DNA of 64,000 nucleotides from a bacterium. Lineage in GTDB: Bacteria > Sumerlaeota > Sumerlaeia > SLMS01 > JAHLLQ01. Positions 18,533 to 44,726 of the stretch are shown here, piece by piece. The stretch spans positions 62,001 to 126,000 of the forward strand of contig JAHLLQ010000002.1 in NCBI GenBank assembly GCA_020444065.1, written 5' to 3'. How positions within the stretch are numbered: position 1 is the first letter of the stretch; each line of letters starts with the position of its first letter. A model generated the notes under the pieces. That model saw nothing but the letters and a program-made list of their open reading frames with translations, searched no databases and had not been told where the DNA came from. The translations under genes were made by a program, and so were the position numbers.

Positions 18533-19678
18533 CTACTGGCGCCATACGTCTTTCAACTCGCCCAGGCCTGCTTTCAAGATCCTTCGGCGGTTCTGAATCT
18601 CGAGGACGTGGCAATCCTGACAGGGCTTCGGCTTGATCCCACTGTGCAGATCGGCCCGCAGCTTCCGCCATTCCGGCCCATTCCACAGCGTTCCGAAGTC
18701 ATCCTTCGTCAGATCGCCGATTTCGCCCTCCGTCCAGAAGCAGCAGAACTTGATCCGACCGCGCACATCCACGTGGATCTGGTGCCAGATGTTGTCGCAG
18801 TGATAATGCGGCCGCGCGCCGTTCTGCTTGGCAGGCTCTTCCTCAAGGTCCGACGTCTCGGCGCTCAGGGCCCCATAGCTGCCCCCGGCCGAGCCGCGAT
18901 CCTCGATCGATTCGCCCATTGGGAACCAGTCGATCCGGATTCCGTGGGGTTCCGCACGGCGCCGGGCCTTGCTGATTGCCTCGCGACAGGCCTTCAGGTC
19001 CCGCACGCGCGCATCATCCATCAGCTTATTGTAGGGGTACATGTTCTGGAAGGTCACGACGGCCGCGCCGGCTTCAGCGGCCAGGTCCACGATCTGCTCC
19101 ACCTCGCCGATCGTGTCCTTCATCAGGCACGTGATGAAGGTGACGACGGGGAAGGGCGATCCGACCTTCTCCTTCGCCGCGCGTAACTCGCGCAGATTCT
19201 CCCGCACTTCGTCCCAATTCGCCCGCTTGCGCCACTTCTCGAACGTCTCGCGCGTTCCTCCGTCGATGCTGACATTCATCAGCATTGGCCCCATCCCTGC
19301 AATCTTGTCAATCATCCCACGCTTCTTCCACAGCGTCGCGTTGCTGATCACCGATGGCGTCGCGCCGGCCCGCGTGATGATCTCCAGAATCTCAATGATG
19401 TCCGGGTGCAGGAACGGTTCGCCGTTGCCGGCCAGGCCCACGTAGGTTGTCCGCTTGAACCACGGTTCCAGATTTCGGATCGCCTCGATCGGGATATGCC
19501 CTGTGTTGATCGGAATATCCGGATTCTCGCGCGGACAATGGGGGCACTTCAAGTTGCAGAAGTCGTTCACCTCTAGGTGAATCCGCAGCGGATTCGCCCA
19601 CACACGATCCCGACCTGCCAACTTGTCCGTCAGCGACAGCGCCGTGTTCCACAACCGACTCAGCTTCTGCGTGTTCAT
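18533..19678 (-). CDS. Radical SAM protein with SPASM-like C-terminal domain
   Basis: 381-residue enzyme. The radical SAM motif is FCNLKCPHCPR (CxxxCxxC) near residue 45, followed by GNGEPFLHP and ISNATL, the family's SAM- and cluster-supporting motifs. The C terminus has a SPASM-like set of cysteines: YHCDNIWHQIHVD, GRIKFCCFW, then KPCQDCHV, probably binding auxiliary Fe-S. The ATG at 19678 is chosen because the long upstream extension (to 19792) is unlike the family. No peptide precursor or obvious substrate gene is adjacent, so the reaction is unknown. It resembles the second radical SAM gene at 28422 in layout. Confidence 0.88.
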   Translation of the reverse strand: MNTQKLSRLWNTALSLTDKLAGRDRVWANPLRIHLEVNDFCNLKCPHCPRENPDIPINTGHIPIEAIRNLEPWFKRTTYVGLAGNGEPFLHPDIIEILEIITRAGATPSVISNATLWKKRGMIDKIAGMGPMLMNVSIDGGTRETFEKWRKRANWDEVRENLRELRAAKEKVGSPFPVVTFITCLMKDTIGEVEQIVDLAAEAGAAVVTFQNMYPYNKLMDDARVRDLKACREAISKARRRAEPHGIRIDWFPMGESIEDRGSAGGSYGALSAETSDLEEEPAKQNGARPHYHCDNIWHQIHVDVRGRIKFCCFWTEGEIGDLTKDDFGTLWNGPEWRKLRADLHSGIKPKPCQDCHVLEIQNRRRILKAGLGELKDVWRQ

Positions 19679-19808
19679 TCCGTGCCTGAATTCCTTACTC
19701 GACTCTGCACCCAACCCAGGGGGCGACACCTTCGGTGGGCCGCCCCTCCTTAGCAAGGCCCTTTCCTTGCCCGCCGGGCTGAGAAAAGCCATTGCCCTCG
19801 CCGGGCAG

Positions 19809-19834
19809 GCGTTATGTCATTTCAAACATAACGC
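19809..19834 (+). promoter_or_regulatory. ModE-like molybdate operator upstream of modA
   Basis: A perfect 9-bp inverted repeat, GCGTTATGT and ACATAACGC, separated by eight bases, ends 30 bases before the modA start. The known ModE consensus is CGTTATATA-N6-TATATAACG, 24 bp in total. The site here has the same 24-bp frame from CGTTATGT to ACATAACG, with the CGTTAT/ATAACG ends conserved. ModE normally represses modABC when molybdate is plentiful. No modE gene is in the window. Confidence 0.7.
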
Positions 19835-19864: not shown

Positions 19865-20626
19865 ATGACGCTACGTAGAATCCCACTTCTGACCTTCGTT
19901 TGCCTCGCAGTCGCCACTCTCGCGATTTCTTGCGGCAAGCCCAAGCCTCCCCGTACCGAGCTCACCGTCGCCACCGCGGCGAACTTCGCGCCCACCATGG
20001 AGAAGCTGGCCGGGGCGTACGAGCCCGAAAACAACGTCCAAATCGTGATTTCTCAGGGGTCTTCGGGCGTTTTGCAGCGCCAGGCAAAGGAAGGCGCCCC
20101 CTTCGATCTCCTCATCAGCGCCGACATGCGCCGGGTCGAAGAGTTGGCTGCGGATCAGGTTATTCTGCCGGAATCGGTAGCGCCCTACGCCAAGGGCATC
20201 CTGGTTCTCGCCCAGACTCGGGGCCCAGAGGTCGACAAGCCGGCTGGCCTGGCGCACTCCGGCCATCGCATCGCGATCGCCAATCCGGAGCACGCCCCCT
20301 ACGGCACGGCAGCGAAGCAGGCGCTCACCAAGATGGGCATCTGGGAGGACGTCGAACCGCGGGTTGTTTACGGAGAAAGCGTCGGCCAGGTTTTGCAGTT
20401 CCTCGAAACCGGCAACGTCGATGTCGCGTTTCTGCCCCTCTCCCTGGTCAAGGACCGGATCGAGGAATTCACGCCGATCGACCCGGAGACCTACGACCCG
20501 ATCCTGCAGGGCTTGGGCGTGATCGCCGCCACGACGCATCCGGAAAAAGCACAGGAACTTCGCGACTGGCTGTTGGGCCCGGAGGCTCAGAACATCATCC
20601 TCGCCGCCGGCTACGAAGCCCCCTAA
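19865..20626 (+). CDS. modA: Molybdate ABC transporter substrate-binding lipoprotein
   Basis: 253-residue periplasmic binding protein. A lipoprotein signal ends in the lipobox LAISC (Cys about residue 23), so it is probably tethered to the membrane. The mature part begins ELTVATAANFAPTMEKLA and continues with VQIVISQGSSGVLQRQ, APFDLLISADMRRVEEL, GTAAKQALTKMGIW and NVDVAFLPLSLV, the ModA order. The Ser in SQGSSG and in the first loop are the usual oxyanion contacts. Its control by a ModE-like site supports molybdate (or tungstate) as ligand. No permease or ATPase gene follows; the next gene is on the other strand, so modBC must be elsewhere or it works with another system. Confidence 0.9.
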   Translation: MTLRRIPLLTFVCLAVATLAISCGKPKPPRTELTVATAANFAPTMEKLAGAYEPENNVQIVISQGSSGVLQRQAKEGAPFDLLISADMRRVEELAADQVILPESVAPYAKGILVLAQTRGPEVDKPAGLAHSGHRIAIANPEHAPYGTAAKQALTKMGIWEDVEPRVVYGESVGQVLQFLETGNVDVAFLPLSLVKDRIEEFTPIDPETYDPILQGLGVIAATTHPEKAQELRDWLLGPEAQNIILAAGYEAP

Positions 20627-20629
20627 CCG

Positions 20630-22870
20630 TCAGGGGTCCAGGATCGTCACTTTTTCGATCACATCTTCGGCCACGATTTCATCGAGGAAGTCCGGATCGA
20701 TCTTTGCCCCTTGGGCTTCCTGGGGCATATCGTCGGAATCCATGATCATTCGACCAAACACCGTGTACCCGCCGTCCAGATGCGGCTGCGGCGAGTGGCA
20801 GATGAAGAACTGCGATCCGCCGGTGTCCTTGCCGGCGTGCGCCATTCCAACCGATCCGCGATCAAATCGATCTGAGTTGATTTCGCACGGAATCATGTAG
20901 CCTGGTCCGCCCCAACCATCGCCGTGCGGATCGCCACCTTGAACGACGAAGTCCGGGACAACACGGTGGAACGGGATGCCGTTGTAAGTTCCCTTCTTGG
21001 CAAGGTGAACGAAGTTATTCACTGTCAGGGGCGCCTGCTTCGGAAGCAGTTCCAGCACAATCCGTCCGCGATCCTGGATGTCGACCACCGCCACCACGCG
21101 CGTGTTCTCCAACTCTGCCGCGTCGCCGTAGAACTTCCAGGGCTCCTGCGCCGCTTCGGCTGCCAGGTCCGGCCCTGTTCCCCGCAGGAACTTGCCGTAA
21201 TTCTCCGGCGTGCCCTGATCCAGAATCTTCAGCGCGTACCGACGGACGATCGGGCTCGGATCGCCCAACGCATCCTCAAACGCTTCGTGTACTTCCTCCA
21301 GCCCCAGCCCGGCCCTCAGAGCCTCCAGGAGCGCTAGACGCGCTTCCGGATCCTTCGACGTATCCGCTCGGTAAGCCGTGATCAGGTTCTTTGCCAATCC
21401 CGCAGGATAGTTCTCCAGTTCTTCCTCATCCGGCGCCAATTCCGCCGCTGCCACTGCACGAACCAGGGGATTCTTCGACGCCTGCAGCACGCCCAGCAGG
21501 AAATCCATGCGCTCGTCGTACTTTCCGAAGCCGTACATCGACTTGGAAATGGCACCGACCAGATGCGGCTTGATTGCCTCGACCCGCTTCTTGACCACTG
21601 CCGGGGCATCCTTCGCATCGTACAGGCGGAAGAGCTCGAAATTGGTTCGCTGCGACCCCACCTCGGCCAGAGCTGCCACGTGCGCCCGAAGAGCGGGGAT
21701 CGTATTGAGGCGATAGCCGTCGGGAAACTCCATCGCGCGTTCCGGCGTCTCGAGCGCTCTCATCACCAGGGAGTAGCTCTCCATGGCCTGGAAACCCACC
21801 TGGTTCGGCAGCGCCCGCAGACGATTCATGCGATCCAGTGTTTCCTCAGAGAGCGCCTTCGCCAGTTCCTCATCATCAACGGCCAATCCTTGCAGCAGAA
21901 CGATCAGCCGATTCGCGGCGGATCCCTGCTTCACCACCCACTTTTCATCGGCCAACGCCTCATCGGCCAGCACCGCGAATGCATCCTGCAGTTGCTTTGC
22001 TCCGCCCAGTGCCGCCACGGCCCGTGTCGCTTCGATTCCCAGGTGTTGATTCGGCCGATCGATCAACTGCGCCAGTCCAGCGACATCCTCTGCGGATCCA
22101 AGCTGCCCCAATGCCTTGGCTGCTTCCGCCTGCATCTGGTCGTCCACCTGCGGCATTGCCTCCCAGGGCGCGCCGCCCAGCTTTGCTCGAACTGCTTCTG
22201 CAGCCCGCTTGCGCGTCGCTTCGTCCATGCTCTTCGCCATGCGGCCCAGCATGGTCACGGCGACGGCCTGCACCGCGGGCGACGGGTGATTTGCGGCTTC
22301 AATCAGCACATCGACCTGATCGGCAGCCTTGAGCCGCATCAGTGCCGTCGCCAGCAAGCGAGCCCGCGCATCCACTTCGGGCGATTCTTCATTCGGGAGC
22401 GCGCCCAGCATCGGTCCGATCAGCTTGCCTGCACCGTCGGCGCCAATCTTGCCGAGCGCCTCGGCTGCGAGCGCCGCGACAGACTCGTCGGAATCCGCCA
22501 ATGCTCTCTCCAGCGCCTCGACGACCGCCTCGTTCGCTTCTCCGCCATAGGTTTGCACATTGCGCTGATCGAACATCAGGCCGAGTGAAAACGCTGCAGC
22601 CCCCCGCAGCTCCGCCGACGAATCCTGCAAGTAAGGCAGAATCGCCTCCGCATCGTTCGGATCGCCAATGCGCCCCAGGGCCAGCAGCACACGTTCGCGT
22701 TGCACCGGGCTCTCCGATTCCAGCAGTGAACTCAGGGTGCTGGAGTCCCGCAGCGCCTCCGCTTCCAGGATATTCGCTTCTACATTTTCCGTGGAAGCCT
22801 CCTGCGCTGGAGATAAACTCGCTAGAATCAGTATAATAGGAAGTGCAAGGGTGGACAGTTTGCGGATCAT
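20630..22870 (-). CDS. Secreted HEAT-repeat protein fused to a cyclophilin-type peptidyl-prolyl isomerase
   Basis: 746 residues. Signal peptide at about 1-22 ([11 protein letters not shown]). Residues about 30-560 are helical HEAT-like repeats of roughly 30-35 residues ([72 protein letters not shown]). From about residue 595 comes a cyclophilin domain with [17 protein letters not shown], catalytic Arg in [14 protein letters not shown], and [23 protein letters not shown]. The Trp that binds cyclosporin in eukaryotic enzymes is His here (PHLDG), as in many bacterial ones. It probably assists folding of exported proteins, with the repeats as a docking surface (inference). Convergent with modA; only three bases separate their stops. 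Confidence 0.9.
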
Positions 22871-23044: not shown

Positions 23045-25279
23045 TCACGGCGATGGCAGCGTTGGGTAGGCAACCATCCCGATCGACCACCCCAGCAGAA
23101 CTTCCGCATCGACCCGATCGACAACGCCATCCGAGTTCACGTCCCATTCGAATGTGTAGGTTAGCAGTCCGCCCGCAGCCAGGACTGCCCGGGCCATCTC
23201 AATCCCATCCGTCATGTTGGTTACCCCGTCGCCATTGTAGTCGCCGTACGACGGTTTCTTATTCGGATTGTGCGGATTCGATCCCAGCAGATCCTCAATC
23301 TGGTCCGTGAACCCATCGCCATCCGTATCCGTGTAATCGATGGGGGTTGGAGACGGTGTGACCGACGGCGTTGGGCTGGGAGTATCGGACGGTGTCGGCG
23401 ATGGCGTATCCGATGGCGTTGGGCTGGGCGTATCACTTGGAGTCGGCGATGGCGTATCGCTTGGCGTCGCAGTCGGCGTGTCTGAAGGCGTTGGTGTTGG
23501 GGTATCCGACGGCGTTGGACTTGGTGTGTCGGAAGGAGTTGGGCTGGGTGTGTCGCTCGGAGTGGGAGACGGCGTATCGCTTGGCGTCGCAGTCGGTGTG
23601 TCCGATGGCGTTGGTGTTGGCGTATCCGAGGGTGTTGGACTTGGAGTATCCGACGGAGTCGGGCTGGGAGTGTCGCTGGGAGTTGGCGACGGCGTATCGC
23701 TTGGCGTCGCAGTCGATGTGTCCGATGGCGTTGGTGTTGGGGTATCCGATGGTGTTGGACTTGGAGTATCCGACGGAGTCGGGCTGGGAGTGTCGCTCGG
23801 AGTCGCAGTCGGAGTGTCTGAAGGCGTGGGTGTGGGAGTGTCCGACGGTGTTGGACTCGGAGTATCTGACGGCGTGGGACTTGGTGTATCGCTTGGCGTC
23901 GGCGAAGGCGTATCGCTCGGCGTCGCGGTTGGAGTTTCCGTGGGAGTCGGGCTCGGCGTTGGCGTCGGCGTCGCGGCGCCGGGCAACTCCAGCGTCAGGA
24001 TGTTCGCAAATCCGAACCCGCTATAGGAAGGAAACGCAATGATCCGGCCGCCGTCCGCTGACTGACGAATCGACATTTTGGTGAATTGCCCGCCCGGAAA
24101 GTAGGTCTTCCGCGTGATCCACGACGTATTTGTCCCTGTGACAGAAGTATCGAAGGAATAAAGTCGGCTCTCCGCAGTAGCGCTGCTTGCCGAAGTCTTC
24201 ATCATGAACGCGCCGTAGCTGCCGTCGCCGGTCAAAACCAGCGGGTCGACGTTCTCCTCGCCCAGGTGCAGATCGGCCGACTCGGGCATGAAGCTGCCCC
24301 GATACGTCAAAGTCCCATTGCTATTGATCGTCAGGTAATTAACGCCGACGGGCAATCCACCCGCAGGCGATTGGCCTACGAAGGCCAGCGTGTTACCCCG
24401 TGCCAGCATGAAGTCGCCATCCCGGATCGTACCCGCCGTCGTGATATCGCCGGTAATCGAAGTCAACGTCCCCGTCTGGCTTGCATCGAATCCCATCAGC
24501 AGCGAGCCATTCGGGATCGCGAGATAAAGGTAAGCCGAATCGTCGGAGAAACACGTCGCCCCCCCCGTCAGAATCGACAGCGATCGCGTGTAAGTCGCCA
24601 CTTCGGTCAGTGCGTACGTCGTGGGATCGACCGAGTAGAGATAGAGTTGGGCTTCGCTGCTTCGGCCCGGCTGAAACAGCGCCACCTTCGACCCGTCCAG
24701 CGAGATATCGATGTCGTAGATCAACCCATTGCGATTCTGGAAGTTGGCGAATTCGCCGTCGGGCGAGACCCCGAAGACATATCCGTACGTTTTGCTGCCG
24801 GTCGTATAGCCGCGAAGGATCACGAATCGCCCGAGCGGATCCACCTCCATTTCTTCCCAGTAGTCCGGGGGCGTCGAAACCGTCACCGTCCCCGCATTGC
24901 TGATCGCTCCAGTTCCTGGAATGATATCGAAGAAATCGACATTCCCTGATGGCAGCGATGTTGCCACGCCCAGGATCCCGTTTCGCGAAATCGCGCTCTG
25001 CGTCGAATTCGGAGACGATGCGGCGGTTCCCAGCGTCGTTGAGAACGTCCCAGTCCCGTTGGCATCGGCTGTCACACCCTTGCCGCCGGTCGATGGGTCA
25101 GTCCCCGCGCTGAACAGCAGATTCCCGCTCCCGTCCAGCGAATGAAAGAACATCTCCGACTGGCTGAACGTGCCAGTGCTGGTCAGATCCCCGGGCGCGG
25201 CCACCAGCGTGGCGGCCCCCGAAAGAAGCGCAAATGATAGTATCGGCGCCGCGATCCGGCGCAGGGCAGAGTTTCGCAT
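23045..25279 (-). CDS. Secreted beta-propeller-like protein with Ser/Asp/Thr/Pro octapeptide repeat and C-terminal dockerin-like module
   Basis: 744 residues. Signal peptide (about 1-28, ending VAA). Residues about 30-430 are beta-rich with blade-like units ([45 protein letters not shown]), resembling a lactonase/WD-type propeller. A Thr/Pro linker leads into 24 copies of an eight-residue unit, SDTPSPTP and variants. The end has a thrombospondin-3-like [19 protein letters not shown], then two calcium-binding loops spaced as in type I dockerins: [22 protein letters not shown] and [19 protein letters not shown]. The ATG at 25279 fits the signal peptide; a TTG 18 bases upstream is possible and neither has a clear Shine-Dalgarno. 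Probably a surface or secreted adhesin-like protein. No cohesin gene is seen here. Confidence 0.82.
23342..23917 (-). repeat. 24 tandem copies of a 24-bp coding repeat with a 120-bp higher-order period
   Basis: The repeat encodes SDTPSPTP units. Read from the protein N terminus, variants occur in order: three or so SDTPSPTP, one SDTPTPTP, one SDTPTATP. This block of five units recurs, giving block sizes 5, 4, 5, 5 and a final run of 5 ending SVTPSPTP. One unit reads SDTSTATP. A further 20 residues of irregular Thr/Pro sequence precede it. Silent differences between units show it is not a fresh expansion throughout. Confidence 0.93.
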
Positions 25280-25526
25280 GTGGACAACGATCCCCAAATC
25301 GGAATGAAAGCAGGAAGAAAGCCTATAAGCTCTAAGGGGTTAATGCTAGCCCGATTCCAGGGTTTTACTCCGACTTGCCCCGCGTCCACACAATCGCTAG
25401 ACTTCACTTCGTGTTGAGATGGAATGGCTCTCGCAAACCCCGGCATTTCGGGGCCGATTGCGTGCGAGAGTGTGTCATCCCGCCCAAGTATGCCCTCGGG
25501 CGCGAGCCTGGAAGGAGCAGTCCGGC

Positions 25527-44102: not shown

Positions 44103-44726
44103 CTACTCGGAGAAGCGCTGTTCCTTCCACGGATCGCCGTAGTTGTGATAGCCGTGTCGCTCCCAGAATCCCGGCTGATCCTCGCGCATAAACTCGATGC
44201 CATTCAGCCACTTCGCGCTCTTCCAGAAGTAGAGCTTTGGCAGAACCAGCCGCACGGGTCCGCCGTGCTCGCGGTCCAGGGGTCGGCCCTCGTAAGTATG
44301 GGCCAGCAGCACCTCGTCCTCCAGGAAATCCGCCAGCGGGACGTTCGTTGTGTACCCGCCATAGCTGTGCTGCATCACGTGGGCGGCGCCCTCAGCCAAC
44401 CCGCCCGTCCGCTCCTCGATCGCCGCGAGGAAGTCCTTCACCCGCACGCCTGTCCACGTCGTATCGAGCTTCGACCACGTCGTCACGCAGTGGATATCGC
44501 GCGTCAGCGTCGTTTGGGGCATCGCCATCAACTCATCCCAACTCACGACCGTTTCTTCTTTGACCAGCCCGAACACGCGACAGGTCCACTCCTGCTGGGC
44601 GATCTCGGGCGTCGGTCCGTAGGTCAGAACCGGAAACCCCTTGGTCAGGTGCTGCCCGGCCGGCACGCGGTCCGCATTCGGATCCGGCTCTGTGCTGGCT
44701 TTCTTGAGCTTGTTGAATAGCGACAT
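44103..44726 (-). CDS. Sulfite oxidase-family molybdopterin oxidoreductase
   Basis: 207 residues of the oxidoreductase molybdopterin-binding domain (YedY/MsrP relatives). The Mo-coordinating Cys is in DIHCVTTWSKLDTTWTGVRV near residue 80. Other family marks are VKDFLAAI, HVMQHSYGGYTTNVPL, GGPVRLVLPKLYFWKSAKWLNGIEF and RHGYHNYGDPW. No Tat or Sec signal is present (MSLFNKLKK start), so it is cytoplasmic, unlike MsrP. No heme subunit gene is adjacent. Substrate unknown. It depends on Moco, consistent with moaC and modA elsewhere in the window. Divergent from the acetyltransferase gene. Confidence 0.9.
   Translation of the reverse strand: MSLFNKLKKASTEPDPNADRVPAGQHLTKGFPVLTYGPTPEIAQQEWTCRVFGLVKEETVVSWDELMAMPQTTLTRDIHCVTTWSKLDTTWTGVRVKDFLAAIEERTGGLAEGAAHVMQHSYGGYTTNVPLADFLEDEVLLAHTYEGRPLDREHGGPVRLVLPKLYFWKSAKWLNGIEFMREDQPGFWERHGYHNYGDPWKEQRFSE

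What the first reader, a model, noticed from the sequence alone, without database searches (positions are those of the whole stretch)
19809..19834. ModE-like operator before an orphan modA
The perfect 9-bp inverted repeat has the ModE half-site ends and the same 24-bp frame as the consensus, 30 bases before a ModA lipoprotein. ModE boxes have been described mainly in Proteobacteria, green sulfur bacteria and Archaea; finding one here would extend the regulon. No modBC or modE is adjacent.
Basis: partly seen in the sequence, partly recalled or inferred. Interest (0 to 1): 0.55.

Follow-up and report, generated by a model that had tools for sequence, protein, structure and literature searches.

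The report
Molybdenum-control DNA switch before modA
A short mirror-image DNA site in front of a molybdate-uptake gene is very probably the docking site of a small ModE-type regulator that lies elsewhere in the same genome and also controls two other molybdenum genes; it is a known kind of switch in a bacterial group where it was not expected.

Summary
GCGTTATGT-N8-ACATAACGC (19809-19834) ends 30 bases before a modA lipoprotein gene. On its own the repeat is not beyond chance, but its context makes it real. The 5.2-Mb genome has only three exact CGTTAT-N12-ATAACG sites. All three are CGTTATGT-N8-ACATAACG, and they lie 28-41 bases before modA (window), modB (directly behind a modE gene, another contig) and moaA. 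So a ModE-type regulator exists and its regulon is split over three places. In relatives the operon is intact (modE-box-modA-modB in 3 of 4 same-family genomes). A box also precedes moaA in 3 of 4, with a degenerate one in the fourth. A TTGAC promoter-like element lies within 40 bases upstream of 11 of 12 boxes, as expected for a repressor that covers the promoter. This ModE is only the DNA-binding domain (122 aa), and no molybdate-binding TOBE domain was found in this genome or its four family relatives, so how it senses molybdenum is open, as noted in 2004 for Desulfovibrio. ModE-DNA binding and response to molybdate remain inferred.

The parts
19809..19834 (.). ModE-type operator: perfect 9-bp inverted repeat, 8-bp spacer (24-bp frame CGTTATGT-N8-ACATAACG)
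   Evidence: identical frame at modE-modB and moaA in the same genome and before modA/moaA in relatives
19792..19797 (+). Candidate -35 element TTGCCC, 18 bases before the box; the other 11 boxes collected all have TTGAC 15-36 bases upstream
   Evidence: position -18 read from the printed flank; inference, no promoter mapping
19865..20626 (+). modA, molybdate ABC transporter substrate-binding lipoprotein (253 aa)
   Evidence: TIGR01256 154.4 bits; PF13531; PDB ModA relatives 9wgd, 1atg; signal with Cys at residue 23 read from sequence
18533..19792 (-). Divergent radical-SAM/SPASM-like gene; shares the intergenic region, could be affected by the same operator
   Evidence: Only sub-cut-off NCBIfam hits (best TIGR04311, 103 of 400 bits); inference only

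Best explanation
The repeat is the operator of a single-domain ModE-type repressor encoded on another contig of the same assembly (G000:C5, 122 aa). ModE, presumably as a dimer, binds the 24-bp palindrome, which overlaps or directly follows the -10 region of the modA promoter, and keeps modA off when molybdenum is sufficient. The same protein serves sites of the same form before modB and moaA, so binding protein, permease and the first enzyme of cofactor synthesis are co-regulated although the operon has been split. Shown: the site, its two genomic twins, the modE gene, and conservation before modA and moaA in relatives. Inferred: physical binding, repression rather than activation, and response to molybdate.
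For: Three exact boxes in 5.2 Mb, all upstream of Mo genes; the backwards control gives 0 in this genome and 2 in all 40 genomes against 9 forward sites. ModE present: TIGR00637 E 1.6e-25, PDB relatives 2ijl E 6e-23 and E. coli ModE 1b9m E 1.7e-11. modE-box-modA-modB in G001, G002, G004. moaA boxes with at most 3 of 16 mismatches in G001, G002, G004 and a degenerate one in G003. TTGAC within 40 bases upstream in 11 of 12 boxes against 130 of 5740 background 40-mers. In 80 named single-domain ModE loci, a mismatch-free CGNTAT-N12-ATANCG lies near the 3' end of modE (40 bases before to 250 behind) in 19 of 80, against 5 of 1420 control windows.
Against: The modE hit is just below the curated cut-off (91.2 of 98.5 bits). 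No TOBE/Mop domain in G000-G004, so the molybdate-sensing step has no known part. G003 has modE but no box at modE and no modA. The divergent ModE of G034 has no box nearby. The window modA itself has TTGCC, not TTGAC. In 47 of the 80 named loci no box with at most 1 mismatch was found near the end of modE. No modC above cut-off. One exact box in a ModE-negative genome (G023) and one in G024 (C5) lie inside or across ORFs and look like chance.
Confidence: 0.9

Rival explanations
1. The box is a ModE activator site (as ModE activates the moa operon in E. coli), at least at moaA, rather than a repressor site.
For: PMC11980592 (passages) states that ModE represses modABCD and activates moaABCED in E. 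coli; moaA carries a box here.
Against: The boxes lie downstream of or over the candidate promoter: TTGAC starts 15-36 bases before the box in 11 of 12, a position where activators usually do not act.
Confidence: 0.12
2. The repeat is the binding site of a different, unrelated regulator that happens to control Mo genes, and the HTH-only ModE uses another sequence.
For: Single-domain ModE of Desulfovibrio was predicted to use a different box, CGGTCACG-N14-CGTGACCG (PMC545781, passages); G003 keeps modE without a box at modE.
Against: Box and modE are adjacent in 6 of 8 ModE-positive genomes of the phylum (1 of these with a core mismatch), while 31 of 32 ModE-negative genomes lack an exact box. 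The box has the E. coli frame, and many other single-domain modE genes carry such boxes.
Confidence: 0.05
3. Chance inverted repeat or transcription terminator/hairpin without a regulator.
For: A perfect 9-8-9 repeat occurs twice in this window.
Against: Two twins of the same form before other Mo genes, conservation in relatives, no T-run after the repeat, position upstream of genes.
Confidence: 0.01

Closest known systems
E. coli ModE and its operator (consensus ATCGNTATATA-N6-TATATANCGAT as quoted in PMC545781)
   Same: Homologous winged-HTH domain (1b9m, E 1.7e-11); half-site CGTTAT at the same 24-bp spacing; targets molybdate transporter and moa genes
   Different: Here no TOBE/di-Mop domain; arms read CGTTATGT rather than CGNTATATA; modA, modB and moaA each have their own copy
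Single-domain (HTH-only) ModE proteins, e.g. PDB 2ijl (135 aa, 'Molybdenum-binding transcriptional repressor')
   Same: Nearest solved relative (E 6e-23, aligned over residues 5-116); same architecture; 80 of 80 best named genome hits are short proteins of this kind (100-136 codons from match start to stop), many with a box directly behind modE
   Different: modA has left the modE locus in the window's genome, taking or keeping its own box
Desulfovibrio single-domain ModE (Rodionov et al. 2004, PMC545781)
   Same: DNA-binding domain alone, molybdate sensing unexplained
   Different: Predicted operator there is CGGTCACG-N14-CGTGACCG, and MOP domains exist fused to an integrase-type domain; no TOBE found in G000-G004

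Membership tests
ModE operator (ModE box) | Palindrome with CGNTAT / ATANCG half-sites at 24-bp frame | tested here: met
ModE operator (ModE box) | Lies upstream of molybdate transport or cofactor genes, repeated in the genome | tested here: met
   modA, modB, moaA; conserved in relatives
ModE operator (ModE box) | A ModE protein exists in the genome and binds the site | tested here: inconclusive
   Presence shown; binding not testable with these tools
ModE regulator | N-terminal winged-HTH domain of the ModE family (TIGR00637) | tested here: met
   E 1.6e-25 over positions 2-84 of 100, 91.2 bits, below curated cut-off 98.5; PF00126 above its cut-off
ModE regulator (E. coli type) | Two C-terminal TOBE (Mop) molybdate-binding domains | tested here: not met
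   122-aa protein, no TOBE; no PF03459 match in the whole genome nor in G001-G004, while 12 of 14 control genomes ring
ModE regulator | Molybdate-dependent DNA binding | not testable with these tools
   Needs gel shift or footprint with and without molybdate
ModA | Match to TIGR01256 above cut-off, secreted/lipoprotein signal | tested here: met
   154.4 bits against 62.5; signal read from sequence

The most novel reading that the evidence does not exclude
In this family of bacteria a ModE regulon works without any TOBE/Mop molybdate-binding domain in the genome. Molybdenum status would then be sensed by the bare winged-HTH ModE itself through an unrecognised oxyanion site, or by an unknown partner protein.
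Probability: 0.45. Interest if true: 0.55.

Novelty: new member of a known kind. Interest (0 to 1): 0.3.

Why it matters
It gives a clean, three-site ModE regulon in a bacterial phylum represented by 40 genomes here. It also shows that an operator accompanies modA after the operon is broken up. Because the regulator has no molybdate-binding domain and none was found elsewhere in the genome, this regulon is a simple setting to ask how single-domain ModE proteins, which are common in Proteobacteria, sense molybdenum. That question was left open in the literature read here.

Tried and rejected
Tried without result: naming the organism. Sumerlaeota is only a guess from general features, untested; the Sumerlaeota paper PMC8092238 was checked only by passages, which say nothing on ModE. 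Studholme & Pau 2003 is not held; its title was seen in a reference list. A possible link to TunR gave no papers. Taveirne et al. 2009 on a Campylobacter ModE-like protein was seen only as a reference. Passages of PMC5517513, PMC10102598 and PMC4178425 added nothing on single-domain ModE.

Considered and rejected: (a) chance repeat; (b) terminator; (c) recent lateral gain of modA as shown fact. The window modA is only 33-37% identical to the modA of G001, G002 and G004, but modA differs as much between those genera themselves (36-39% between G001 and G002/G004), while modB stays at 62-65%. So relocation of the resident gene is as likely as replacement, and the data do not decide. (d) A wider regulon: the listed sites with up to 2 core mismatches (54 places counted, list cut) do not coincide with the xanthine-dehydrogenase-type or sulfite-oxidase-type genes found.

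ModC: each of the 8 genomes searched has ABC ATPase matches to TIGR02142, none above its cut-off. Since only 1 of 14 control genomes passes that cut-off, absence of modC is not shown; only that none was seen next to modA or modB.

Full report
Observation. The repeat is present as described: perfect arms GCGTTATGT and ACATAACGC, spacer CATTTCAA, 19809-19834, with 30 bases to the ATG of a modA gene at 19865. The protein is ModA by TIGR01256 (154.4 bits, cut-off 62.5) and by its PDB relatives. As a bare inverted repeat it would not stand out: two perfect 9-8-9 repeats exist in the 64-kb window, and with up to 2 core mismatches 2 matches were found in the window where shuffles give 0.74.

Genome-wide context. 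The genome (5.2 Mb, 14 contigs, 97% complete) contains three exact CGTTAT-N12-ATAACG sites, and all three have the longer form CGTTATGT-N8-ACATAACG. At 60% GC the expectation is 0.11 for the core and 0.0004 for the long form. One is the window site. The second lies 13 bases behind the stop of a modE gene and 41 bases before modB (TTG start; L006 7778-8146, 8160-8183, 8225-8905). ModB is confirmed by TIGR02141 (202.6 bits, cut-off 182.6). The third lies 28 bases before moaA (L007 8062-8085, 8114-9151; TIGR02666 291.2 bits, cut-off 284.05).

The regulator. TIGR00637 (ModE DNA-binding domain) finds one gene in the genome, E 1.6e-25, 91.2 bits, slightly below the curated cut-off of 98.5. The 122-aa protein is the DNA-binding domain plus a short tail. 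Its nearest solved relatives are 2ijl (135 aa) and E. coli ModE 1b9m. Pfam sees only the HTH. PF03459 (TOBE), the molybdate-binding domain of ordinary ModE, has no match at E 0.001 in this genome or in G001-G004, while it rings in 12 of 14 control genomes and in G024 and G033.

Relatives. I searched 61 genomes for ModE. In the own phylum (40 of these genomes, own included) 8 have it: G000-G004 (all five of the family), G024, G033 and the divergent G034. The exact core box is in 7 of the 40 phylum genomes (9 sites), and its backwards control gives 2 sites in 40. Seven of the nine sites are next to Mo genes or modE; the other two, in G023 (no ModE) and G024:C5, lie inside or across ORFs and look like background. 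In G001, G002 and G004 the order is modE-box-modA-modB. G008, same order but without modE, has modA-modB with no modE match and no box in the 12-kb stretch. So the window's modA is a relocated member of this operon, or a replacement, that has its own copy of the operator, and modB kept another.

moaA. moaA was found in all 5 family genomes. A box with at most 3 of 16 mismatches lies just upstream of it in G000 (0 mismatches), G001, G002 and G004. By my arithmetic, the chance that one of the remaining 5, 17 and 3 such sites falls within 150 bases before moaA in G001, G002 and G004 is about 2e-4, 5e-4 and 1e-4. G003 has no such site under that search. By eye its moaA upstream region shows CGTTATTTCCCGCCGGAGCCAACG, 4 of 16 mismatches, in the same place, which looks like a decaying copy. 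G003 also has no modA match and no box at modE.

Promoter geometry. In the 12 boxes I collected (3 own, 3 before modA in relatives, 4 before moaA in relatives including the G003 relic, 2 behind modE in G024 and G033), TTGAC begins 15-36 bases before the box in 11 of 12. Background is 130 of 5740 40-base windows. The exception is the window site, which has TTGCCC at -18. A -35 element at that distance puts the -10 region or start site inside or at the edge of the box, the geometry of a repressor. This is inference; no start sites are known.

Wider setting. All 80 are short (100-136 codons from match start to stop), mostly Pseudomonadota, with single cases labelled Verrucomicrobiaceae, Myxococcaceae and Nitrospina. 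In 19 of 80 a mismatch-free CGNTAT-N12-ATANCG lies between 40 bases before and 250 bases behind the end of modE (33 of 80 with at most 1 mismatch), against 5 and 17 of 1420 control windows. The remaining 47 of 80 show none. In a tree of 89 ModE rows, 7 of the phylum's 8 group together (99/94), the long-branched G034 apart (few columns). This fits one old acquisition within the phylum, in this sample of best hits.

Other branch of the regulon. In G033 and, with one core mismatch, G024, the box behind modE is followed by a pilin-like gene (by reading) and then a DUF364-type gene and a FecCD-type permease gene; in G033, where Pfam was run, a periplasmic binding protein follows. A molybdate transporter MolBC-A is known (PMC4031551, search listing only; that it is of the FecCD type is recalled). 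The ModE box may thus have switched transporter type there.

What molybdenum is for. The only PF00384 match sits in an ORF between what read as complex-I genes (L163; NuoG by my reading, no family call). Four reading frames with MoCoBD_1 (xanthine-dehydrogenase type) and two Oxidored_molyb genes, one of them inside the window at 44163-44618, indicate real molybdoenzymes.

Literature. PMC545781 (passages) gives the E. coli consensus ATCGNTATATA-N6-TATATANCGAT, a Geobacter site, single-domain ModE in Desulfovibrio with a different box, and says the mechanism of Mo-sensing there is not clear. PMC11980592 (passages) describes TOBE-bearing ModE forms and E. coli targets. The searches listed no paper on a ModE regulon in this phylum; as its name is not established, that is weak evidence of novelty.

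Verdict. It belongs to a known kind. The part worth attention is the absence of a molybdate-binding domain in a genome with a clean ModE regulon.

Noticed in passing
44163-44618 (-): A sulfite-oxidase-type molybdoenzyme domain (PF00174, 146.7 bits, G000:C2:106163-106618) lies in the same window, without a ModE box among the listed near-matches.
   Followed up: partly
18533-19792 (-): Divergently transcribed radical-SAM/SPASM-like gene whose best NCBIfam hits are metalloenzyme and tungsten-cofactor maturases, all far below cut-off; it shares the intergenic region with the operator.
   Followed up: partly
L036 5907-8510 and L035 5992-8523: In two class-level relatives (G033, G024) the modE box is followed by a type-IV-pilin-like gene and then a DUF364 + FecCD transporter cluster, suggesting the ModE box controls another transporter type there.
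   Followed up: partly
L006 7778-8905 and window 19865-20626: modA and modB without an adjacent modC; the best ABC ATPase match in the genome (G000:C3:562492) is well below the modC cut-off, so the ATPase partner is unknown.
   Followed up: partly
23045-25297 (-): A 750-aa secreted-looking protein with a long [13 protein letters not shown] repeat and a dockerin-like end (by reading).
   Followed up: no
20630-22870 (-): Peptidyl-prolyl isomerase domain behind a long HEAT-repeat-like region, convergent with modA.
   Followed up: no
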